From positions 1 to 14,657 of the forward strand of contig CBDUXZ010000008.1 of assembly GCA_965371325.1 (NCBI GenBank): a stretch of DNA of 14,657 nt. Reading direction: 5' to 3'. The notes below the pieces were generated by a model, which ran no database searches, had not been told where the DNA came from, and saw only the letters and a list, made by a program, of their open reading frames with translations. This document shows, piece after piece, positions 2 through 9,938 of this stretch. A program made the translations under genes and the position numbers. Source of the DNA: CBDUXZ01 sp965371325 [NCBI: uncultured bacterium]. GTDB lineage: Bacteria; JAUYMQ01. Position 1 is the stretch's first letter, and every line of letters begins with the position of its first letter.

Positions 2-1117
2 CAGTTCCTGGCCCTCGAGGTGGCGCACCAAACGCTTCTGGACGCCGGCATCCCCGATCTACCCCTGAACAGGGAGCGGACCGAGGTGATTCTGGGTCGC
101 GGCACATTTGTCAACCGCGGAACGATCACGAACTTGCTGCACAACATATCGCTCCACCAGTTCATTCGCGTTCTGGCGCAGCTGCACCCCGAGCATACCG
201 ACGAGGAACTGGAGGCCGTTCGTGAAATGCTCAAGTCGAACCTGCCTCCCATCAACGCCGAGACCGCCGGAGGTTCGGCGCCAAGCCTGGTCTCCGGACG
301 CGTGGCGAATCGCTTCGATCTCAAAGGACTGAACTGCACCCTCGATGCGGCCTGCGCGTCTTCTCTCGTCGCCATCGAGCACGCCATGAACGATCTCCGG
401 GAGGGGCGCTGTGACGCGGCACTCGTGGGAGGCGTCCAGGTTTCCACAAGTGCGCCCATTCACAACATGTTCGCCAAGATGGGAGCCCTCTCGCGTCTTC
501 CCCACCTTCGCCCCTTCGACAAGGACGCGGACGGGACGATGCTGGGCGAGGGCGCGGGAATGATGCTTCTCAAACGACATGCCGACGCCGAGCGCGACGG
601 GCACCGGATCTATGCCCTCGTCCGTGCAGTCGGCATCTCCAGCGACGGTCGCGCCAAGGCTGTTCTCACGCCCCGGGTAGAGGGAGAGGAGCTGGCCGTC
701 AGGCGCGCATACGAGGCCGCGGGGATTGAACCGGCGACGGTGGGATTGATTGAGGCTCACGGCACGGCGATGCCGGTGGGGGACGAAACAGAGATCAAGG
801 CGCTCCACCGCGTCTTCGGCGACCGCCAGGGATCGGCGACCGTGGCCCTCGGCTCGGTGAAGTCGATGATCAGCCATCTGCTGCCGGCTTCGGGCATTGC
901 GGGCGCGATCAAGGCGGCCCTCGCGCTCTACCACAAGGTTCTTCCGCCGACGATCGCCTGTGAAAATCCGAATCCGAAGCTCGAGATCGAGAAGACCCCC
1001 TTCTATCTCAACACCGAAACGCGCCCCTGGATACACGCGGGCCCGAACCCGCGGCGCGCCGCCGTCAACGCCTTCGGCTTTGGCGGCATCAACGCCCACG
1101 CCGTGCTCGAGGAGCAC
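2..1117 (+). other. Ketosynthase (KS) domain, N-terminally truncated
   Basis: Condenses the growing acyl chain with the extender unit. The frame begins at the conserved segment before LEVAHQTLLDAG, so roughly the first 60-80 residues of a normal KS are off the window. The nucleophile is C118 in DAACASS. The first histidine is H253 in EAHGT. The second lies in KSMISH (K287, H292), where most KS domains have KSNIGH. The glycine-rich end is NAFGFGGINAH (356-366). All catalytic residues are present, so the domain should be active. The extra segment at about residues 38-90, before the active site, is longer than in modular PKS domains and resembles the iterative synthase class. That resemblance is from memory of the family, not computed. 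Confidence 0.93.
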
Positions 1118-4100
1118 CCCGTACCCAACGAGGACCTGACGGCGAGCCTCCACCGGCGCTGGGACACCGAGCTGGTGGTCATACGGGGTGAACAGAGGAA
1201 CGAGATCCACGCGAGGGGACGGCGGCTTCTCGGGTTTCTGGAACGGTTCCCCGACGTGACCCTGAAGGACGTCGCCTACACGATGAATCAGGAGCTTTCG
1301 AACCCGGGCTTGCGGCTTGCGATCGTGGCCTCCGACACCGGTGATCTGACACGCAAGCTCGGCCATGCGCTCGATAGGCTCGCGGACCCCGGCTGCAAAC
1401 GCATCAAGGAGCGGAGCGGCATCTTCTTCTTCGAGGAGCCTCTGCACCCCGGGGGGCGGATAGCACTCCTCTTTCCGGGAGAGGGATCCCAGTATCCGGG
1501 CATGCTGGGTGATCTGTGCTTCCACTTTCCGTTGGTCCGCTCCCGGTTTGATCTCATGGAGCGAGCGTTCCGGAACCATCCCCGAGGTTACACGCCCGCC
1601 CAGTTCATCTTCCCGCCCCCAGCGGTCGGGCAAACCGTCGATTCCGAACAGCAGGAACGGCTGCTCTGGCAGATGGACGGCGCCGTCGAGTCGGTCTTCG
1701 TGGCGGATCTCGCGCTCGCGGCCCTCCTCAGGAGCCTTGGCCTCAAGGCGGACATCGCGGCCGGGCACAGCGCCGGTGAATACAGCGCGCTCGTTCTCAC
1801 GGGTGCCACCCGCGTGGACAGCGACGCGTCGCTTGTTCGCATGATCCTGGACGTGAACAGCGTCTACCAGCGCCTCCAGGAGACGCAGAGCATTCCCGCC
1901 GTGGTGCTCATCGCGGTCGGTGGCGCCGATGCCGGGCTTCTGGAAGAGCTTACCCGCCTCCACGCGGGGAAACTCTTCGTCGCCATGGACAATTGCCACT
2001 ACCAGGTGGTACTCAGCGCCGCACCCGAGATCGCCGAGGGTGTCGTGGCCCGGCTCAAGGCCGACGGTGCACTCTGCAACACGCTTCCCTTCGACCGTCC
2101 CTATCACACGCCGCTCTTCGAGCCAGCCTACCGCTTCCTGGTCGAATCCTTCCCGCCGATCAGCCAGCCCAGGCCGGAGATCCAACTCTGGTCCTGTGCA
2201 ACAGCGGCCCCCTACCCCGAAGGTCTCGAGGAGGCAAGACGGATAGCGCTCGAGCAGTGGATCAGGCCGGTGCGATTCCGCGACACGGTGGAAGCGATGT
2301 ACGACGCCGGCGTGCGCATCTTCGTCGAGGCGGGGCCCCGGGGGAACCTCACCTCCTTCGTGAACAACGTGCTCCGAAAGCGCCCCTACCTGGCGACGGC
2401 GACCAACCTCCCCGGCCGATCGGGGATCAACCAGCTCCACCAGGCGCTGGCGCTTCTGGTGGCCCAGGGCGTTCCGCTCACCCTCGACCCCCTCTACGCG
2501 CGCCGCGCCCCCGAGCGTCTTGACCTCGAACGGCGGGAAAAGCCTGGCCCCACGCGAAGGGGGGCCATGAAGATCTCCCTCGCCCTCCCCTCCCTGCAAC
2601 TGCCGGCGGACGCGCGCCCCTTCACAAGCCCGACCGCCGCCCCGCCGTCGATCGCGCCGGCGACGCCCGGCCCCGTCGCCCCGCAAGCGGCAGGAAACGG
2701 GAGGGATGCTTCACGGGATGCGACTTCACCCGCACCCGAGGGTGCAGCGGTTCGAGAGCCGGCGGTTTTCGGAGCGGAGATCGAGACCTACTTTGACACC
2801 ATGGAACAGTTCCTCGGGGTCCAAAGCGATCTCATGCAGGCTTTTCTCGCCGAGCCCGCCCTGTCGGATCACGCGACTCCCGTTCACGCCATGGATGAAG
2901 CCCTGGACCCCGGCGGCGTGCAAGGGCCCGCCGAGGCGCGCGCGCCGGCCCCACATCTCTCTCATGCCGCGAAGTCCCCCCCGACGGTCACGGCGGAAAC
3001 GATCCCGACCGATGCGACAGATGAAACCGCCGCTCCTGGAACGCTTCCGGAGGCAAGCGGAGCGCGCGCGGGCAAGCCGGGGCCGCTGGTCGGCGACATC
3101 ATCTCCCTGACGCCCGGTGTGAATCTGACGGCCCGCCGGAGGCTCGCTCCGGAAACCGATCTCTTCCTGCAGCACCACACGCTCGGGGGACGCGCCTCTC
3201 GCCGCGACCCCGCTCTGACCGCACTCCCCATCATGCCACTCACCATGACCCTCGAGATGGCGGCCGAGGCGGCCCTCGCCCTCGCGGCCGGGATGAAGGT
3301 TGTCGAGCTGCGCGACATCCGGGCGAACCAATGGATCGACTTCGACGAGGGCAGCAGAACGCTCCTCATCACCGCGCAGCGGGAAGCCGGAGACCTGGTA
3401 TGCGTAACCATCGCGCAGGCGGGAGAAGCGGCGGGTGGGACCTCGGACGCCCTGCCGCCCCTGTTCGAGGCGACCGCGCGCCTGGCCCCGGAACTCCCCG
3501 CGGCGCCGGCGGCGAGCCCCTTCAAACCCACCGACGCGGGCCCGTCCCGCTGGAATGCAGACACCCTCTACAAGACTGGTATGTCCCACGGCCCGAGCTT
3601 CCAGGGGGTCGAGAAGGTGGAACTCTGGGGAAAGGACGGGGTCACCGCACGGCTGGCCACCCTCCCCGCCGACGGATTGTTCGCCGGGGAGAGCGCACCC
3701 CGCTTCATCTTTGACCCCGCGCTCCTGGACGCGGCCGGGCAGCTGGTCGCCTTCTGGAACGGGGAGAAGGATCTCCGCGGCGTCATCTCGACGCCCTTCC
3801 GCATCGATTCGATCGCGCTCTACGGCCCGCCGCCTCCCCCCCATGCCCATCTCGCCGCGCGGGCGCGGGTCCAGCGGCTGGCCCCGGCTCATCTGCGGGC
3901 GGACTTCGAGGTCGATGCTCCGGAAGGGGGGCTCCTCCTCCGCGTTCGGGGCTGGGAGGACCGCTGCATCGATCTGCCGGAGCCGATGGTCGGGCTCACA
4001 TCGAAATCGGAAGGCCTGACCCTGAGCGAGCGTTGGAAGGCGCCCGAGGCGCCCCTGGGCAACCCCATCGGTTTCCGCTGCCGCCGAGTTCACGCCTGGC

Positions 4101-4810
4101 CCCCGGGAACCTTCGAGGGTTCCGGCATGATCTGGCAGAAGCAGGTTGTTCACCTGATCCTGTCGCGCACGGAGCGTGAGGCATGGCGCGCACTCCGCCT
4201 ACCGCCCCGCGCCCGGACCGAATGGCTCTTCGCCCGCGCGGCGGCCAAGGACGCCGTGTGCGAGCTGGCGCGGGAAAATCACCGAATCGATCTTTTGCCG
4301 GCCGACGTCGAGATCACGGCCACCGAACTCGGCCGGCCGCGCGTCGCGGGCGTGCTCGCAGAAATGCTCGAGCGTCCGCCAACCGTCTCCATTGCCCACG
4401 GCCGCGGCATCGCCGTGGGCATCGCGGCCGAGGGGGAAATGGATCTCGAACTGGGGATCGACGTCGAGCGCATGCGCCCCCTCAAGGAAGGCTTCGAGCG
4501 CATCGCCTTCTCGGAAGAAGATTTGGTGATTCTCGAGGGGGTCGGCGAGGACGCGCGCGCCGAGTGGTGGCTCCGCGCATGGTGCGCCAAGGAGGCGGCG
4601 GCCAAGGCCCTCGGAACCGGACTCGCGGGAAAGCCGCGCGATCTGGTCCTGCGCAAGCTCGATGAAAGCAACGGGATGATGGCGGTCGAAATCGGAGGAG
4701 AGCCGGCCCGCATGCGCCCTGCCTTCACCGGAGAGATCCTGGAAGTCTACACGCTACGCGAAAACGACCACATTGTCGCAGTCACAACGTGCAGAAGGAG
4801 TGAAACATGA
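2..4810 (+). CDS. Iterative type I polyketide/fatty-acid synthase, KS-AT-DH-PPTase, 5' partial
   Basis: The reading frame is open from base 2, so the N-terminus is missing; the first visible residues already lie inside the ketosynthase. About 1602 residues remain. Visible domains in order (numbered from base 2) are: KS with catalytic C118, H253 and H292; AT with GHSAGE at 588-593 and H702; a Pro/Ala-rich linker of about 200 residues; DH with HxxxG at H1059 and D1243/Q1247; and a C-terminal Sfp-type phosphopantetheinyl transferase with GIDVE around D1487 and WCAKE at 1527-1531. I find no carrier-protein motif, ketoreductase Rossmann motif or thioesterase serine motif in the visible part. PPTase-fused synthases are known for enediyne and PUFA-like systems, but those carry internal ACPs. 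The stop codon overlaps the start of the ACP gene (ATGA), which supports a matched pair. Product and starter unit are unknown; domains upstream of the KS cannot be excluded. Confidence 0.95.
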   Translation, partial: QFLALEVAHQTLLDAGIPDLPLNRERTEVILGRGTFVNRGTITNLLHNISLHQFIRVLAQLHPEHTDEELEAVREMLKSNLPPINAETAGGSAPSLVSGRVANRFDLKGLNCTLDAACASSLVAIEHAMNDLREGRCDAALVGGVQVSTSAPIHNMFAKMGALSRLPHLRPFDKDADGTMLGEGAGMMLLKRHADAERDGHRIYALVRAVGISSDGRAKAVLTPRVEGEELAVRRAYEAAGIEPATVGLIEAHGTAMPVGDETEIKALHRVFGDRQGSATVALGSVKSMISHLLPASGIAGAIKAALALYHKVLPPTIACENPNPKLEIEKTPFYLNTETRPWIHAGPNPRRAAVNAFGFGGINAHAVLEEHPVPNEDLTASLHRRWDTELVVIRGEQRNEIHARGRRLLGFLERFPDVTLKDVAYTMNQELSNPGLRLAIVASDTGDLTRKLGHALDRLADPGCKRIKERSGIFFFEEPLHPGGRIALLFPGEGSQYPGMLGDLCFHFPLVRSRFDLMERAFRNHPRGYTPAQFIFPPPAVGQTVDSEQQERLLWQMDGAVESVFVADLALAALLRSLGLKADIAAGHSAGEYSALVLTGATRVDSDASLVRMILDVNSVYQRLQETQSIPAVVLIAVGGADAGLLEELTRLHAGKLFVAMDNCHYQVVLSAAPEIAEGVVARLKADGALCNTLPFDRPYHTPLFEPAYRFLVESFPPISQPRPEIQLWSCATAAPYPEGLEEARRIALEQWIRPVRFRDTVEAMYDAGVRIFVEAGPRGNLTSFVNNVLRKRPYLATATNLPGRSGINQLHQALALLVAQGVPLTLDPLYARRAPERLDLERREKPGPTRRGAMKISLALPSLQLPADARPFTSPTAAPPSIAPATPGPVAPQAAGNGRDASRDATSPAPEGAAVREPAVFGAEIETYFDTMEQFLGVQSDLMQAFLAEPALSDHATPVHAMDEALDPGGVQGPAEARAPAPHLSHAAKSPPTVTAETIPTDATDETAAPGTLPEASGARAGKPGPLVGDIISLTPGVNLTARRRLAPETDLFLQHHTLGGRASRRDPALTALPIMPLTMTLEMAAEAALALAAGMKVVELRDIRANQWIDFDEGSRTLLITAQREAGDLVCVTIAQAGEAAGGTSDALPPLFEATARLAPELPAAPAASPFKPTDAGPSRWNADTLYKTGMSHGPSFQGVEKVELWGKDGVTARLATLPADGLFAGESAPRFIFDPALLDAAGQLVAFWNGEKDLRGVISTPFRIDSIALYGPPPPPHAHLAARARVQRLAPAHLRADFEVDAPEGGLLLRVRGWEDRCIDLPEPMVGLTSKSEGLTLSERWKAPEAPLGNPIGFRCRRVHAWPPGTFEGSGMIWQKQVVHLILSRTEREAWRALRLPPRARTEWLFARAAAKDAVCELARENHRIDLLPADVEITATELGRPRVAGVLAEMLERPPTVSIAHGRGIAVGIAAEGEMDLELGIDVERMRPLKEGFERIAFSEEDLVILEGVGEDARAEWWLRAWCAKEAAAKALGTGLAGKPRDLVLRKLDESNGMMAVEIGGEPARMRPAFTGEILEVYTLRENDHIVAVTTCRRSET
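1460..2490 (+). other. Acyltransferase (AT) domain
   Basis: Loads the extender acyl group onto the carrier protein. The entry motif is GEGSQYPGM at residues 493-501, in place of the more common GQGSQ. The nucleophile S590 sits in GHSAGE (588-593), and the catalytic histidine is probably H702 in PYHTPLF. The domain ends near the segment containing GINQLHQALALL. I do not assign malonyl versus methylmalonyl specificity, because the usual specificity motifs are not clear enough by eye. Residues of about 370-485, between KS and AT, form the usual KS-AT linker region. Confidence 0.9.
2491..3085 (+). other. AT-DH linker with a conserved-looking helical segment and no carrier domain
   Basis: This stretch of about 200 residues is rich in Pro, Ala, Thr and Glu and looks disordered. 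In its middle, residues of about 926-955, sits an amphipathic segment (EIETYFDTMEQFLGVQSDLM and following) with a Phe/Leu/Met heptad-like pattern. It is the only part that looks structured. No DSL-type phosphopantetheine attachment motif is visible where an enediyne or PUFA synthase would carry its ACP. The helix could be a docking or dimerisation element for the discrete ACP; that is inference. Confidence 0.6.
3086..3985 (+). other. Dehydratase (DH) domain, double-hotdog type
   Basis: Removes water from beta-hydroxyacyl-ACP to give an enoyl chain. The catalytic histidine of the N-terminal hotdog is H1059, followed by TLGG, giving the HxxxG pattern; H1058 directly precedes it. The C-terminal hotdog carries D1243 in DPALLDAAGQL, with Q1247 four residues on, matching the DxxxQ pattern of PKS DH domains. 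At about 300 residues it fits a PKS-type double hotdog. The domain ends with the family's RVRGWEDR strand. The presence of a DH implies that a ketoreductase acts somewhere, but none is visible in this polypeptide. Confidence 0.88.
4100..4807 (+). other. Fused 4'-phosphopantetheinyl transferase (PPTase) domain, Sfp-type
   Basis: Transfers phosphopantetheine from CoA to the serine of a carrier protein, converting apo-ACP to holo-ACP. Magnesium-binding residues appear in LGIDVERM (D1487, E1489) and in WCAKEAAAKALG (W1527, K1530, E1531), the two hallmark motifs of the Sfp family. The upstream ERxxW and GRAAAKDAV-like helix and the PADVEI strand are also typical. The domain runs to the protein's end, where the stop codon overlaps the ACP start codon. 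The likely substrate is therefore the neighbouring discrete ACP. Confidence 0.92.
4793..4800 (+). promoter_or_regulatory. Shine-Dalgarno site for the ACP gene
   Basis: AGAAGGAG lies six bases before the ATG at 4807. It is the strongest ribosome-binding site in the window. It sits inside the end of the synthase gene, so the ACP can be translated efficiently and in excess of the megasynthase despite the ATGA overlap. Confidence 0.75.
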
Positions 4811-5127
4811 GCACCGAAATGCAGGCCTCAACCGGATCCCGGGAAACGGTTATCAAGCAGGTGATCAACGTGCTGGAGGACATGACCAGCGACTGGGACA
4901 TCGACTTCTCGGGAGACATCGGTGAATCGACGCAGCTCGTCAGCGATCTCGCCTTTGAATCAATCGACGTGGTGCACCTTATCGTTACCCTCGGTGAGAT
5001 TTACCAGGAGAAGGACCTTGGCTTCGAGGAACTGCTGATCGAGGACGGGCGTTACGTCACGGACCTCAGCATCGCGCAGCTCGCCGACTTTCTGAACAGG
5101 AAGCTCATTGAGAGAGGAAACGTCTAG
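4807..5127 (+). CDS. Discrete acyl carrier protein
   Basis: A 106-residue acidic protein with the helix pattern of an acyl carrier protein. The phosphopantetheine attachment residue is probably S52 in LAFESIDVVHL, where typical ACPs read LGxDSL; the Asp before Ser is replaced by Glu and the following Leu by Ile. The rest fits the fold, with an N-terminal amphipathic helix, a long loop and a closing helix containing DLSIAQLADFL. The loop between helices II and III (residues of about 68-86, with GRYVTDL) is longer than in fatty-acid ACPs. The gene overlaps the synthase by four bases and directly abuts the phosphohydrolase. I infer that it is the carrier for the upstream synthase, which lacks an internal one, and a substrate of the fused PPTase. 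A housekeeping fatty-acid role is less likely given the operon. Confidence 0.9.
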   Translation: MSTEMQASTGSRETVIKQVINVLEDMTSDWDIDFSGDIGESTQLVSDLAFESIDVVHLIVTLGEIYQEKDLGFEELLIEDGRYVTDLSIAQLADFLNRKLIERGNV

Positions 5128-6723
5128 ATGGCAAAGACGCTCCTACTCGGCCTCGACAGCATGACGTTCAGGGTTCTCGACGACCTCGTCGGCGAAGGGC
5201 GGCTGCCCTTCTTCGAGCGATGCCTGTCGGAGGGGGTCCGCGCGGATCTCATCTCCACACCGAACCCGCTGACCCCGCCGGGTTGGACCAGCATGATCAC
5301 GGGCCAGGGACCGGGCGTGCACGGTGTGTACGACTTCATGCACTGGAGCGAGCACGAGCACGGCCCCTGGGGAAGACTCGTCACGTCGAACGAGGTGCGC
5401 TGCGAGACCATCGCGTCGATGGCGGACAGGCACGGCATGCGGGGGATCTGGCTCAATTTCCCGCTGATGTTTCCGGCGCCGCGCATCAAGGGGTTCGTGG
5501 TGCCCGGCTACATCACGGCCAGGCAGTTGCGCACAAGCATCTACCCCCGGTCGCTCTACGACCGCATCCGCGCACTCCCCGACTTCGATCCGAAGGAGTT
5601 CAGCTGGAACATGGAGGAGAACCGTCGGGCTGTGGACGGCCTTCCGGCGGAAGAATACGAGCGCTGGATAGGCTACTACATCACCAAGGATCGCCACTGG
5701 TTTCACGTGGCCCGCATGCTGATCACGGAAGAAGCGTGGGATCTGGCGGCGATAGTCTTCGAGGGCGTCGACCGGCTCCAACACCTCGTCTGGCGCTTCC
5801 TCGATCCCGCCCTGAAGGACACGCTTTCCAGCGACTGGGAACGCCGGATCCGGGACCTCGCCTTGGATTACTTCGTCCAGATCGACGCGCAGCTGGCCGA
5901 GCTGATGGCCATCGCCGGCCCTGAAACCCGGGTCATCATCGCCTCCGACCACGGTGCCGGCCCCAGCACGGAGATCTTCTTTCCGAACGTCCTGCTCTCG
6001 AAGCTCGGCTATCTGAAGTGGAAGAACCAGGGCCCCACGGTGCCGGACGATCAGCTCACGGCGCCTTACATCTTTGACTTCTACAAGTCGATCGACTGGC
6101 CCGCAACGACCGCCTACCTGCGATCGTCCAGCGCCAACGGCATCTACATACGACGGGCCGAGCGCGGATGGGGCGGCGTCACAGAGGCGGACTACGCCGC
6201 CTTCCGGGAAAAGCTGATCGGCGATCTTCTGGGCTACATCGACCCGCGCGACGGCAAGCCCATCATCACCCGGGTCATGACCCGTGAGGAGGCCTACCCG
6301 GGACCGGCTATGGAGGACGCGCCTGATATCACGCTCTTCCTGCGCGACGGCGGGCACCCCGCGGTGCTCAACTCGAATGAGATCGTGAGGTCCCGCCACG
6401 AGGTGAGCGGGATGCACCGGCACGAAGGGGTTTTCATCGCCCTCGGGCCCGGCCTGCGGCACGGCCTGTCGCTACCGCCCCGCGGGATCGCCGACGTGAC
6501 CCCCACGATGCTCTACTGCCTGGGGCTCCCGATCCCCGAGGGGCTCGATGGAAATTTCGTGCGAGAGGCCTTCGAGAAGGACCAGCTGGCCGCCGAGCCT
6601 GTACGCTACGAACACGTGGATGCGCAGGCTGAGAAGCGATCCCAGAGCCCCGAGGAGAGCATGAACGCGGAGGACGAGGCGACTGTGCTCGAGCGACTCC
6701 GGCAACTCGGATACATGGACTGA
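5128..6723 (+). CDS. AlkP-superfamily phosphohydrolase/phosphodiesterase (COG3379-like)
   Basis: A 531-residue metal-dependent phosphohydrolase or phosphodiesterase without a signal peptide, so probably cytoplasmic. The superfamily residues can be placed: D10 in GLDSMT, nucleophile T54 in PPGWTSMITG, D215 and H219 in VDRLQH, D274 and H275 in SDHGAG, and H430 in GMHRHEG. Together they form a complete two-metal site. The C-terminal LERLRQLGYMD tail is characteristic of the uncharacterised COG3379 group of predicted phosphohydrolases or phosphomutases. The start codon directly follows the ACP stop (TAGATG), with GAGAGGAA as ribosome-binding site. Substrate is unknown. Its place straight after the ACP suggests action on a phosphorylated intermediate, a lipid head group or the carrier's phosphopantetheine arm; all three are inference. 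Confidence 0.88.
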   Translation: MAKTLLLGLDSMTFRVLDDLVGEGRLPFFERCLSEGVRADLISTPNPLTPPGWTSMITGQGPGVHGVYDFMHWSEHEHGPWGRLVTSNEVRCETIASMADRHGMRGIWLNFPLMFPAPRIKGFVVPGYITARQLRTSIYPRSLYDRIRALPDFDPKEFSWNMEENRRAVDGLPAEEYERWIGYYITKDRHWFHVARMLITEEAWDLAAIVFEGVDRLQHLVWRFLDPALKDTLSSDWERRIRDLALDYFVQIDAQLAELMAIAGPETRVIIASDHGAGPSTEIFFPNVLLSKLGYLKWKNQGPTVPDDQLTAPYIFDFYKSIDWPATTAYLRSSSANGIYIRRAERGWGGVTEADYAAFREKLIGDLLGYIDPRDGKPIITRVMTREEAYPGPAMEDAPDITLFLRDGGHPAVLNSNEIVRSRHEVSGMHRHEGVFIALGPGLRHGLSLPPRGIADVTPTMLYCLGLPIPEGLDGNFVREAFEKDQLAAEPVRYEHVDAQAEKRSQSPEESMNAEDEATVLERLRQLGYMD

Positions 6724-6732
6724 CAGGCGGAG

Positions 6733-7626
6733 ATGATGGCGAAAGCCAACCTTAAAGGGATTCCAGTGCACTACACCCAGTCGGGCGAGGGCCCCGATCT
6801 GATCCTCGTACATGGCCTCGCCGCCGATCTCTCCTTCTGGTACTTGCGGGTGGTCCCCCGGCTGGCGGTCGGGCGACGCGTCACGGTCTACGACCTGCGC
6901 GGGCACGGCCTCAGCGGAATGCCCCAGGCGGGCTATGCCCCGGCGGATCTGGCGGAAGAGCTCGAGGCTCTGATGGATCACCTCGGCATCGAACAGGCGC
7001 ATCTGGGCGGCCACAGCTTCGGCGGCGCCGTGGCGCTCCAGCTCGCGCTCCAGGCGCCGCGCCGCGTCCGCAGTCTGCTGCTCTTCGACGTGAGGCTCCC
7101 CCAGCTTCAGCCCCTTCCCGCCACAGGGGATAGCGACTTCTGGCGAGAGCGGCGCGACGCGCTTCGTGCGCTCGGCGTCGAGGTGAGCGAGCAGACGCCG
7201 AAGATTCTCTACTCGCTTCTCGAGGAGATCGCGGAGCGACCCGCCGGTGGAAACGGCGGTGTTTCTCCACGGCAGGGCTTCGGCGGCTGGAGGCCCGGCA
7301 GCCGGATGGCACGCCGGTGGGAACGGCTGCGGAACGAGACACGCATGGCCGAGGAAATCAGCGATTGCCGCACACTCAATGCCACCGAGCTTTCGCGCCT
7401 GGGGCATCCCGCACTTCTCTCCTTCGGGGAACGATCCCGCTCCCTCGACACCTGCAGGGCCCTCGAGAAGTGCCTGCCCAACCACCGCACGGTAATCCAT
7501 CCGGGCGTGGGCCACTTTTTCCCGACGGTCCGTCCGGACCTGGTCGTAGAGGACACCCACACCTTCCTCGATGAGGTGGAATCGACCGACTCCCATCGGA
7601 GCCCGGATGGAAGGGGGGGCGGATGA
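6733..7626 (+). CDS. Alpha/beta hydrolase, possible trans-acting thioesterase or esterase
   Basis: A 297-residue alpha/beta hydrolase. The oxyanion region is HG at 27-28, the nucleophile S95 is in GHSFGG, and H261 is in GVGHFFP. The acid residue is less clear: E233 in FGERS or D239 are candidates, and a GExS motif at this position is common in related hydrolases. The cap region (about residues 125-220) is fairly long and Arg-rich. No signal peptide is seen. The synthase shows no thioesterase domain, so a role in releasing the product from the ACP, or in proofreading, is plausible but unproven. Two ATG codons are adjacent (6733 and 6736). The GGCGGAG ribosome-binding site ends directly before the first, so 6736 may be the used start. 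The end overlaps the next gene (ATGA). Confidence 0.85.
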   Translation: MMAKANLKGIPVHYTQSGEGPDLILVHGLAADLSFWYLRVVPRLAVGRRVTVYDLRGHGLSGMPQAGYAPADLAEELEALMDHLGIEQAHLGGHSFGGAVALQLALQAPRRVRSLLLFDVRLPQLQPLPATGDSDFWRERRDALRALGVEVSEQTPKILYSLLEEIAERPAGGNGGVSPRQGFGGWRPGSRMARRWERLRNETRMAEEISDCRTLNATELSRLGHPALLSFGERSRSLDTCRALEKCLPNHRTVIHPGVGHFFPTVRPDLVVEDTHTFLDEVESTDSHRSPDGRGGG

Positions 7627-9938
7627 GGCTTGCGCGCGAGGCGTCGCTCCCGGATGACGTCCGGATTGCGCCCCCGGGGCTCGACCTGGAGAACTTCAAG
7701 CAGATAGGCGTGCGGGGCGTGGGGGATCCGCACAATGCCTACGCCCACTCGATGGTCTGGTTCAAGGGGTGCGTCTACGTCGGGACCTCACGAAACAACC
7801 TTTGGATGGTCAAGCGGCGGGGGCGGATCGTCCCCCCGCCGGAGATGGAATGCTGGCCCGTCAACGTGCCCGACCCGATGCCGCCGGAGAAGATGCGCGC
7901 GCAGATTCTCCGCTACGACCCCCGCCGGGAGGAGTGGAAGCTGGTCTACCAGTCACCCCTGATCATGCGCGACGGCGCGCCTTTCACCCGGGATCTGGGA
8001 TACCGGGGGATGCTGGTCTTTCAGGGCCGCAGCGATCCCGAGCCGGCGCTTTACGCCGCCGGGATCTCGGCCACCGGTCTCAACATGCTCCGCTCCGTGG
8101 ACGGTGAGCATTTCGAAGAGGTCGGTGAGCCGGGCTTCGGCGACCCCCGCATGGTGTCGGCCCGGTCGATGCTCGAGTGGCGCGGACGCATGTACGTCAC
8201 GCCCGTCGGCTCGGTGGGCAAGACGCCGAACGAAACAGACGTGCCGGTGATCCTCGAGTCGGACGATCCGGCCTCGGGAGAGTGGCGCGAGATCTGCATT
8301 CCCGCCTTCGGTGACGATACGAACAAGGCCGTGGCGGAGATGGCCGTGTTCGACGATCACCTCTACGCCGCCACCCTCAACCCGAGCTGCGGTTTCCAAC
8401 TCTACAAGACCCGGGGCGAAGGGGAGCCACCTTACGCGTGGACGCGCGTGATGACGGGGGGGGGCTTTCGCGGCTACCTGAACGAAGGACTCGCCCACAT
8501 GTGCGAGTTCGGGGGGGCCCTCTACCTCGCAACGGGCATTGCCGGGGGGGGCTACAACAGGTGGCACAACATCGGCCCCGCGGCTGCGGAGCTTCTGCGC
8601 CTCTATCCGGACGGGACCTGGGACCTCCTCATCGGCGCGCCCCGACTTACCCCTGACGGGCTGAAGCTCCCCCTCTCGGGCCTTGGGGCCGGCTTCAACC
8701 ATCCGCTGAACGGCTACATGTGGCGCGTCTGCGAGCACGAGGGATGGCTCTACGTGGGAACCTACAACTCGGCCGTCTTCTTCCCGTTCAAACCCATCCG
8801 GATCCCCGAGAAAGTGTTCGAACTGCTGAAGCTTCGCGACATGGACGAGTTCCTTTCCCGCTACGGCGGCTGCCACCTCTGGCGAACCCAGGACGGAGAG
8901 CATTTCTACCCGATCACGACGGACGGTTTTGGCTCGGCCTACAACTACGGCGTGCGGCAACTCCTCTCCACCCGCTCCGGCCTGTTCGTCGGCACTGCAA
9001 ACCCTTTCGGTCCCGAGGTCGGCGTGAAGCGGGCCGGCAAGTGGCGTTACGAGGCAAACCCCCGCGGGGGGCTCGAAATCTGGCTGGGAGATCGCAACGG
9101 GAACCAGGGCCGCGCCGCGCCGCCTCCCCATCGCGACACGGCGGTGACCGAACAACGCTCTACCCTCGCCTCCCTCGCGAGCGTTTTACGGGCTCTGGTC
9201 TACGCCCGGGTGACGGAAGCGTTCTACGGGGAGAGCGGGTACTCGCAAATGGGCTACTGGGACGCCGGTGCAGAGAGCGCGAAACGGGCCTGCGATGATC
9301 TGATGGAGAAGCTGGTCGCCCTCGACCCGGCCAAGCGCGGTCCCGTGCTCAACGTCACGGTCTGCGATCAGGGCGCGACGTCCGAAGCGCTTGCCCGCCA
9401 CTATCCCGAAGAAGAGATCACCGGCACGGACGTCTTCCCACTTTCCCTCGACTTTGCAGTGAAGCGGCTTACCCGGGCGACCTTCAAGCTAGCCTACCCG
9501 CCGCGCCTTGATTTCCCCGACGCCTCGTTCAATGCCATCTACTGCGTCGAGCGCGTTTGCTACTTCAATACGCGGCGGGAGTTCCTGAAGGAGGCCTTCC
9601 GAGTGTTGAAACCCGGCGGGCGGCTCGTTCTCTCCGACGTCCTGTACACGCGCACCGGCGAGGCGCTGAACATCGACCGGCACAGGCAGAACTACCTGGC
9701 CAACCCGGCCGCCTACGAGAAGCTCCTCCGGAAGATGGGTTTCGAGAACATTCAGATGACGGACGCGACCGAGCCCTGCGCCAGAGCCTACCTGGACCAG
9801 ATTCGCGGCCACTTCATGGAGGCGTTTCTCTCAAGAGAAATAAGCGAGGGGGACTTTAACACGCTCATGAGCCTGCTTTCGGTCCACGTGCTTTTCCTGA
9901 GTCACTACGTGCTCGCAGGGGCAACGCGGCCCGCTTAG
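7623..9938 (+). CDS. Beta-propeller-like domain fused to a class I SAM methyltransferase
   Basis: A 771-residue two-part protein. Residues of about 1-490 contain recurring strand pairs of the type GxxYVGT, at about 44-56, 130-149, 182-197, 240-254, 292-309, 369-383 and 447-463. Two DGEHF turns (160-164 and 424-428) resemble Asp-box loops. This fits a six- or seven-bladed propeller. Residues of about 525-771 are a methyltransferase of the type with GYSQMGYWD, then motif I (575-585), FPDASFNAIYCVERVCYF (631-648) and RVLKPGGRLVLSDV (660-673). Motif I reads VLNVTVCDQGA, where the family has VLDVGCGxGA, so SAM binding may be weakened or altered. No signal peptide is seen. The ATG overlaps the hydrolase stop, so translation is probably coupled; no good ribosome-binding site is visible. 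Substrate is unknown. The propeller may hold a partner or substrate for the methyltransferase. Confidence 0.82.
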   Translation: MRLAREASLPDDVRIAPPGLDLENFKQIGVRGVGDPHNAYAHSMVWFKGCVYVGTSRNNLWMVKRRGRIVPPPEMECWPVNVPDPMPPEKMRAQILRYDPRREEWKLVYQSPLIMRDGAPFTRDLGYRGMLVFQGRSDPEPALYAAGISATGLNMLRSVDGEHFEEVGEPGFGDPRMVSARSMLEWRGRMYVTPVGSVGKTPNETDVPVILESDDPASGEWREICIPAFGDDTNKAVAEMAVFDDHLYAATLNPSCGFQLYKTRGEGEPPYAWTRVMTGGGFRGYLNEGLAHMCEFGGALYLATGIAGGGYNRWHNIGPAAAELLRLYPDGTWDLLIGAPRLTPDGLKLPLSGLGAGFNHPLNGYMWRVCEHEGWLYVGTYNSAVFFPFKPIRIPEKVFELLKLRDMDEFLSRYGGCHLWRTQDGEHFYPITTDGFGSAYNYGVRQLLSTRSGLFVGTANPFGPEVGVKRAGKWRYEANPRGGLEIWLGDRNGNQGRAAPPPHRDTAVTEQRSTLASLASVLRALVYARVTEAFYGESGYSQMGYWDAGAESAKRACDDLMEKLVALDPAKRGPVLNVTVCDQGATSEALARHYPEEEITGTDVFPLSLDFAVKRLTRATFKLAYPPRLDFPDASFNAIYCVERVCYFNTRREFLKEAFRVLKPGGRLVLSDVLYTRTGEALNIDRHRQNYLANPAAYEKLLRKMGFENIQMTDATEPCARAYLDQIRGHFMEAFLSREISEGDFNTLMSLLSVHVLFLSHYVLAGATRPA

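What the first reader, a model, noticed from the sequence alone, without database searches (positions are those of the whole stretch)
2..5127. PPTase-fused iterative synthase whose carrier protein is a separate, coupled gene
The visible order is KS-AT-DH-PPTase with no ACP between AT and DH, followed by an overlapping gene for a discrete ACP. Enediyne and PUFA synthases are the well-known classes with a C-terminal PPTase domain, and they keep ACPs in cis. A self-activating synthase with its ACP in trans would be a distinct layout, and the fused PPTase would have to reach another polypeptide. The catalytic residues of all four domains appear intact.
Basis: partly seen in the sequence, partly recalled or inferred. 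Interest (0 to 1): 0.72.

Follow-up and report, generated by a model that had tools for sequence, protein, structure and literature searches.

The report
Second subunit of a lipid synthase
The enzyme looks like the second half of a two-protein bacterial lipid-making machine; related genomes keep further acyl carriers in the first half, encoded just upstream, so it is probably not a lone self-activating synthase, though its coupled small carrier protein is conserved and its role is untested.

Summary
In detail: frame 2-4810 encodes KS-AT-DH-PPTase with no ACP between AT and DH and with catalytic motifs present, overlapping by 4 bases a 106-residue discrete ACP.

The reading as a self-activating synthase with its carrier only in trans fails on context. 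The window starts inside the KS, so the upstream gene is out of sight. Of 41 relatives with upstream DNA, 39 carry a first-subunit gene there (KR and/or DH); a cis ACP was seen in 35. All 26 ORFs with ER, KS, AT and KR hold 1-6 ACPs. The KS falls with second-subunit KSs, apart from modular PKSs. The DH-PPTase half resembles ArsD of phenolic-lipid operons, thought to activate ArsA in trans.

Best reading: subunit 2 of a Pfa-like "secondary lipid synthase". Fused pfaDA plus pfaBC-PPTase is in print, and two Streptomyces records show this gene order. The passages I read do not discuss the discrete ACP, present in 36 of 44 loci with a second-subunit AT and 0 of 13 ArsD-like loci. Product unknown.

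The parts
2..961 (+). KS2 domain, N-terminus cut by window edge
   Evidence: PF00109 residues 1-196 and PF02801 204-320; KS2 clade; Cys/His/His motifs present
1469..2398 (+). AT2 domain (GHSAGE, PYHTPL motifs)
   Evidence: PF00698 residues 490-799
2399..3037 (+). AT-DH linker from the Pfam AT edge (residue 799) to the family DH-profile edge (residue 1013); 221 residues if counted from the family AT-profile edge (792); no ACP
   Evidence: no ACP match with HMMER filters off; a stretch around TMEQFL..Q.DLM.AFLA is shared with L005
3038..4015 (+). DH2 domain
   Evidence: PF14765 residues 1168-1319, and PF21089 below its cut-off; family profile residues 1013-1338
4202..4807 (+). PPTase domain, with GIDVE and CAKEAAAK motifs
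   Evidence: PF01648 residues 1484-1553; family profile 1401-1602; the DH-PPTase profile also matches solved AcpS, the human PPTase and fungal FAS alpha subunits
4807..5127 (+). discrete ACP gene, 106 aa, ATGA overlap with the synthase
5128..6723 (+). type I phosphodiesterase-family gene (alkaline-phosphatase superfamily, recalled), next to or near the ACP in part of the family
   Evidence: PF01663
6733..7626 (+). alpha/beta hydrolase, candidate chain-releasing enzyme
   Evidence: PF00561

Best explanation
The 1602-residue protein is subunit 2 (KS2-AT2-DH2-PPTase) of a two-subunit, Pfa-like iterative 'secondary lipid synthase'. Subunit 1 (ER-KS1-AT1-ACP1-6-KR, often with DH) is expected directly upstream, outside the window. 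Proposed working: the PPTase domain primes the ACPs of subunit 1 and the discrete ACP in trans; KS1/AT1/KR/DH/ER build a long chain on the cis ACPs; KS2/AT2/DH2 add or dehydrate at chosen cycles or at the end, perhaps with the discrete ACP as their carrier; the alpha/beta hydrolase may release the product. Shown by sequence: architecture, presence of catalytic motifs, gene order, clade, synteny in relatives. Inferred: subunit 1 in this organism, trans activation, the division of labour and the lipid product. The stated confidence covers subunit 2 of a Pfa-like two-subunit synthase, not the carrier assignment.
For: 39 of 41 AT-bearing second-subunit loci with at least 1.5 kb of upstream DNA have a KR- and/or DH-bearing first-subunit gene there; a cis ACP was seen upstream in 35 of them, and in the other 4 (L015, L023, L106, L112) the stretch ends first. 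All 26 non-ars ORFs with ER, KS, AT and KR hold 1-6 cis ACPs. Pfam gives NMO, KS, AT, PP-binding, KR and DH in L035 and L037, and all of these but NMO in L038, whose ER rests on the family profile that it helped to build. The nearest relative's genome G004 has first-subunit pieces: NMO-KS-AT(start) on contig C109 (63% to L037) and an ER-region piece on C29 (47%). KS tree of 76 rows: all 27 KS2 in one clade (SH-aLRT 94, just under the starred level; the window in a starred subclade of 17), KS1 with ArsA and PfaA-like (96*), modular separate (98*). The DH-PPTase is homologous to the protein beside ArsA-like synthases; ArsD is described as the PPTase that would modify ArsA. P1a motif x(G/D)xP is present (LGRP) and VSIAH is near the P1b' form GSIxH.
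Against: The upstream gene of this organism was not seen, and no genome is held. In the nearest relative the ACP-KR-DH part of subunit 1 was not recovered: C109 ends in AT1 and C531 starts in AT2. L130 and L138 lack a first subunit in the stretch examined. 8 of 44 loci lack a discrete ACP. The PUFA-type P0 motif hRxhLS is not matched by eye (VHLILS). The loci were chosen among top hits and are related, so the counts are not independent; the link of the discrete ACP with KS2-AT2 rests on few changes (4 on the tree).
Confidence: 0.9

Rival explanations
1. A stand-alone iterative synthase that works only with its discrete ACP in trans.
For: No ACP in the visible polypeptide; a coupled ACP with conserved serine; catalytic motifs present.
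Against: No KR or ER match in the visible polypeptide; relatives have a first-subunit gene upstream in 39 of 41 loci; the nearest relative's genome has first-subunit pieces.
Confidence: 0.05
2. The same two-subunit synthase, but the discrete ACP is not the carrier for KS2-AT2: it is a starter-loading, release or tailoring carrier serving the hydrolase, phosphodiesterase or methyltransferases. (This concerns the ACP's role and can hold together with the best explanation.)
For: In seven relatives of the Sinobacteraceae MAG type (L008, L107, L108, L109, L111, L113, L115) the ACP gene lies 1.7-2.6 kb downstream of the synthase, after the phosphodiesterase. Two loci (L110, L114) hold a further ACP of this type at the start of a separate ORF; the L110 protein is a sulfotransferase.
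Against: In 13 ArsD-like loci, which lack KS2-AT2, the ACP was not found, and the 5 testable loci with a non-GHSxG AT2 also lack it. Tree-aware support is weak.
Confidence: 0.4
3. An enediyne-type PKS fragment.
For: C-terminal PPTase after DH, recalled as the order of enediyne PKSs.
Against: The enediyne order KS-AT-ACP-KR-DH-PPTase in one chain (recalled) is not met: no ACP or KR between AT and DH.
Confidence: 0.02

Closest known systems
Fused pfaDA + pfaBC-PPTase operons (Aquimarina, Flavobacterium), said to resemble the Renibacterium salmoninarum cluster, which is Type M of Shulse and Allen 2011
   Same: Two fused synthase genes, PfaD with PfaA in the first and a PPTase domain on the second (PMC13291983: passages and part 2 of section 7; PMC3098273: sections 6 and 7, passages).
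   Different: In those texts I saw no mention of a coupled discrete ACP; the figures that show exact domains were not held, so identity with Type M is not tested.
ars phenolic-lipid operon (Type P), ArsA/ArsD of Azotobacter
   Same: First subunit ER-KS-AT-ACP-KR; DH-PPTase homologous to ours at 27-32% identity and held to modify ArsA in trans.
   Different: ArsD-like proteins here lack KS2-AT2; 0 of 13 loci have the discrete ACP. Type III PKS genes belong to the Azotobacter cluster and probably to the Methylosinus and Beijerinckia loci, where the record says only 'synthase III C-terminal domain'; none was seen in this window.
PfaA/PfaC/PfaE omega-3 PUFA synthase
   Same: A second subunit (pfaC, KS-CLF-DH2) without ACP beside an ACP-bearing pfaA is the ordinary PUFA layout.
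   Different: AT follows KS2 instead of a CLF; one DH; PPTase fused; the four PfaC-like KSs sampled form their own clade.
RerA/RerB of Rhodococcus erythropolis PR4
   Same: Iterative KS-AT-ACP-ACP-KR-DH synthase whose PPTase domain is on a second polypeptide; with its own ACPs inactivated it placed polyene chains on discrete ACPs supplied in trans (PMC11563203, first of two parts of the text read).
   Different: The in-trans ACPs were engineered single domains; RerB is PPTase-Y-TE, without KS-AT-DH; the test was made with RerA joined to the PPTase.
Streptomyces NBC_00984 / NBC_01243 plasmid loci
   Same: KS-AT-DH-PPTase gene, 'acyl carrier protein' and alpha/beta hydrolase after an ER-KS-AT-ACP-KR gene; gene order from the public annotation, domains from my profiles.
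   Different: No phosphodiesterase match; a glycosyltransferase follows; NBC_00984 lies in a different KS2 subclade (the NBC_01243 row was left out of that tree).

Membership tests
Pfa-like secondary lipid synthase | KS groups with Pfa/Ars-type KSs, not with modular PKSs | tested here: met
   76 rows; modular KSs (5 rows, used as outgroup) separate at 98*; quick tree, SH-aLRT only; no Hgl or enediyne reference included
Pfa-like secondary lipid synthase | an ACP-bearing PfaA-type subunit with KR, and an ER, in the cluster | tested here: inconclusive
   the window is cut; met in relatives (all 26 ORFs with ER, KS, AT and KR hold ACPs)
Pfa-like secondary lipid synthase | PPTase with P1a motif x(G/D)xP | tested here: met
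   TELGRP in the window PPTase; motif definition from PMC3098273
PUFA-type PPTase (Types A, B, C, D, F, I, L) | P0 motif hRxhLS | tested here: not met
   VHLILS at the likely place, read by eye; motif definition, which says that Type P lacks P0 too
PfaC of PUFA synthase (Type A) | KS-CLF-DH-DH order | tested here: not met
   KS is followed by an AT with a GHSxG motif, and a single DH was found
ars / Type P phenolic-lipid synthase | type III PKS genes in the operon and a DH-PPTase without KS-AT | tested here: not met
   no type III PKS among the ten window proteins scanned; KS-AT fused
Type M secondary lipid synthase | pfaDA fusion plus pfaBC-PPTase | tested here: inconclusive
Enediyne PKS | KS-AT-ACP-KR-DH-PPTase in one chain (recalled) | tested here: not met
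   no ACP or KR between AT and DH
Enediyne PKS | KS inside the enediyne clade | not tested
   no enediyne KS reference was obtained

The most novel reading that the evidence does not exclude
The coupled discrete ACP is the dedicated carrier of the KS2-AT2 pair, so this widespread synthase class runs two KS-AT-ACP systems, one in cis and one in trans, on a single lipid chain, and ArsD-type proteins descend from it by losing KS2-AT2 together with the discrete ACP.
Probability: 0.35. Interest if true: 0.55.

Novelty: new member of a known kind. Interest (0 to 1): 0.35.

Why it matters
It turns an apparently new enzyme layout into a member of a lipid-synthase class seen here in Planctomycetota, Acidobacteriota, Myxococcota, Nevskiaceae-type gammaproteobacteria and Streptomyces, for which I know of no identified product. 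The conserved discrete ACP is a concrete, testable gap in how such synthases share work between two ketosynthases.

Tried and rejected
A hidden ACP in the linker was searched with two ACP profiles with HMMER's filters off: none listed for the window. The one viral-contig scan found no relative; plasmid tblastn with the ACP gave no match at E 1; the PDB sequence search with the ACP gave only two unrelated-looking hits. PHROGs gave nothing for the ACP or for the domain at 7623-9092.

An association between the AT2 motif GHSxG and the discrete ACP looked strong by Fisher test (34, 3 against 1, 5), but that script miscoded L005 (its AT is cut; GHSAG), set L007 by hand and left L140 out. Recounted by hand: GHSxG 36 with ACP and 3 without (L130, L135, L138); other motifs 0 with and 5 without (L014, L019, L105, L126, L137); L023 and L136 are cut. 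On the tree only 2 independent pairs exist, so I do not claim it as tested. The same holds for KS/AT against the ACP (35, 8 against 0, 13; p 1e-7).

No enediyne reference was identified among the plasmid records opened, so the enediyne clade was not placed. Literature searches showed in their listings no paper whose title or abstract start describes a discrete ACP in PUFA or secondary-lipid synthases; some listings were capped, most listed papers were not opened, and figures and most subscription papers are not held.
Full report
What is there. The frame at 2-4810 (+) is open at the window's left edge and encodes KS-AT-DH-PPTase. The KS match starts at profile position 90, so about 90 residues and everything upstream are missing. 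Catalytic motifs of all four domains are present. Stop and start of the next gene overlap as ATGA at 4807-4810; the 106-residue product is followed directly by a phosphodiesterase-family gene at 5128 and an alpha/beta hydrolase at 6733.

Is the small gene an ACP? Pfam gives nothing and NCBIfam only weak ACP hits. Aligned relatives keep the serine in 38 of 38 rows, of which two are extra copies in L110 and L114 and two (L139, L140) look alike. Pfam PP-binding does recognise some relatives (L139 E 2.9e-6, L114 E 1.4e-4) but not L104. AlphaFold2 on 22 sequences gives mean pLDDT 79, pTM 0.68; the best Foldseek PDB match is 6lvu_A, an ACP, with TM 0.75 by target length but E only 0.022. I accept it as an ACP.

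Relatives. A scan of species genomes with a DH-PPTase alignment gave 19 loci. The closest, L005 (Deltaproteobacteria MAG), has the same AT-DH-PPTase, ACP and phosphodiesterase order at 67-92% identity, the AT-DH linker being lower at 42%. Profile searches then found matches at E 1e-20 in 74 of 248, 35 of 238, 15 of 248 and 57 of 194 genomes around four relatives, and at E 1e-3 in 70 of 192 around the fifth, many of these partial, PPTase-sized hits. Not every match is a second subunit: DH domains of first subunits and lone PPTases also match. I fetched 8 stretches around the first relatives, 35 more out of the match lists, and opened twelve plasmid stretches; the choice favoured high scores.

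Anatomy of the family (family HMMs built, tallied). 46 loci, the window included, have a second subunit with AT: 8, 3, 32 Streptomyces, 1 window. A first-subunit gene bearing KR and/or DH lies upstream in 39 of 41 with enough upstream DNA; in L007 it lies 2 kb away, and in some loci the subunit is split over two ORFs (L108, L111, L118, L136, L137) or only its 3' part is in the stretch. A cis ACP is seen upstream in 35 of the 41. L130 and L138 are the exceptions; 5 are cut by an edge. All 26 ORFs outside ars with ER, KS, AT and KR carry 1-6 ACPs; 14 of the 26 also carry the DH1 match. A discrete ACP lies on the same strand in 36 of 44 with at least 500 bases downstream; L014, L019, L105, L126, L130, L135, L137 and L138 lack it. 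In 13 ArsD-like loci (DH-PPTase without KS-AT) none was found within 6 kb, nor with the iterated profile.

Trees. The KS tree has 76 of the 105 rows gathered; the other 29 were left out by hand, mostly as near-duplicates. KS2 is one clade of 27 (94), the window sits in a starred group of 17, KS1 groups with ArsA and PfaA-like KSs (96*; KS1 by itself is not one clade because ArsA lies inside), and modular KSs stand apart (98*). The KS1 of G004, the genome of the closest relative, falls with other KS1s. In a DH-PPTase tree of 57 rows the 13 ArsD-like proteins are one clade (99*) beside AT-bearing loci that lack the discrete ACP; the root is a midpoint, so the direction is not shown.

Mechanism. 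The visible polypeptide shows no KR, ER or ACP, so it is unlikely to run a reductive cycle alone. PfaC-type subunits are likewise ACP-free beside the ACPs of PfaA (domain orders in PMC3098273, section 6). ArsD, a homologue of our DH-PPTase half, is described as the PPTase that would modify ArsA (PMC4824345, passage). In RerA, an engineered Pfa/enediyne-like case, discrete ACPs supplied in trans picked up polyene chains (PMC11563203, first of two parts read). I therefore infer trans activation of both the subunit-1 ACPs and the discrete ACP. Which steps KS2-AT2-DH2 perform, and what lipid results, are not shown.

Against. The organism's own upstream gene is unseen, and the nearest relative's assembly breaks inside AT1 and AT2, so its cis ACP was not recovered. 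L007/L037 has an ACP between AT and DH (PF00550 E 2.3e-9), so absence of a linker ACP is not universal. L038's ER has no Pfam match and rests on my own profile. The relatives are phylogenetically clustered, so counts describe rather than test.

Known or new. Fused pfaDA with pfaBC-PPTase is in print (PMC13291983, passages and part 2 of section 7; Type M in PMC3098273, sections 6-7 and passages). The same gene order stands annotated in two Streptomyces plasmid records. The discrete ACP is not discussed in the passages read, and the listings of the searches named in Tried and rejected showed no paper on it. I file the finding as a new member of a known kind.

Noticed in passing
L006, L121, L122, L123 (Paludisphaera soli and three unnamed relatives): The fused PPTase looks degenerate: GIH or AIH replaces the GID motif in all four, and KKA replaces KEA in three of them (L122 matched no such motif), so another PPTase may serve there.
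   Followed up: no
L127, L129, L131: The KS2 active-site cysteine column holds S (L129, L131) or G (L127) where 36 of 39 KS2 rows have C; L127 also lacks both histidines and may be misread. This suggests a KS reduced to a structural or decarboxylating role.
   Followed up: partly
L007:6371-10843: An ACP sits between AT and DH of the second subunit, and the DH continues in another frame in this MAG.
   Followed up: partly
window 7623-9938: A 771-aa protein joins a conserved N-terminal part of about 490 aa without a Pfam match to a methyltransferase; the N-terminal part occurs as a separate gene in L008, L015 and L104.
   Followed up: partly
L110:1296-2672 and L114:1320-2681: An ACP of the discrete type at the N-terminus of a separate ORF near the operon on the other strand; the L110 protein is a sulfotransferase by Pfam.
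   Followed up: partly
window 5128-6723: Phosphodiesterase-family gene without a PDB sequence relative at E 0.001, found near the synthase in many of the loci.
   Followed up: no
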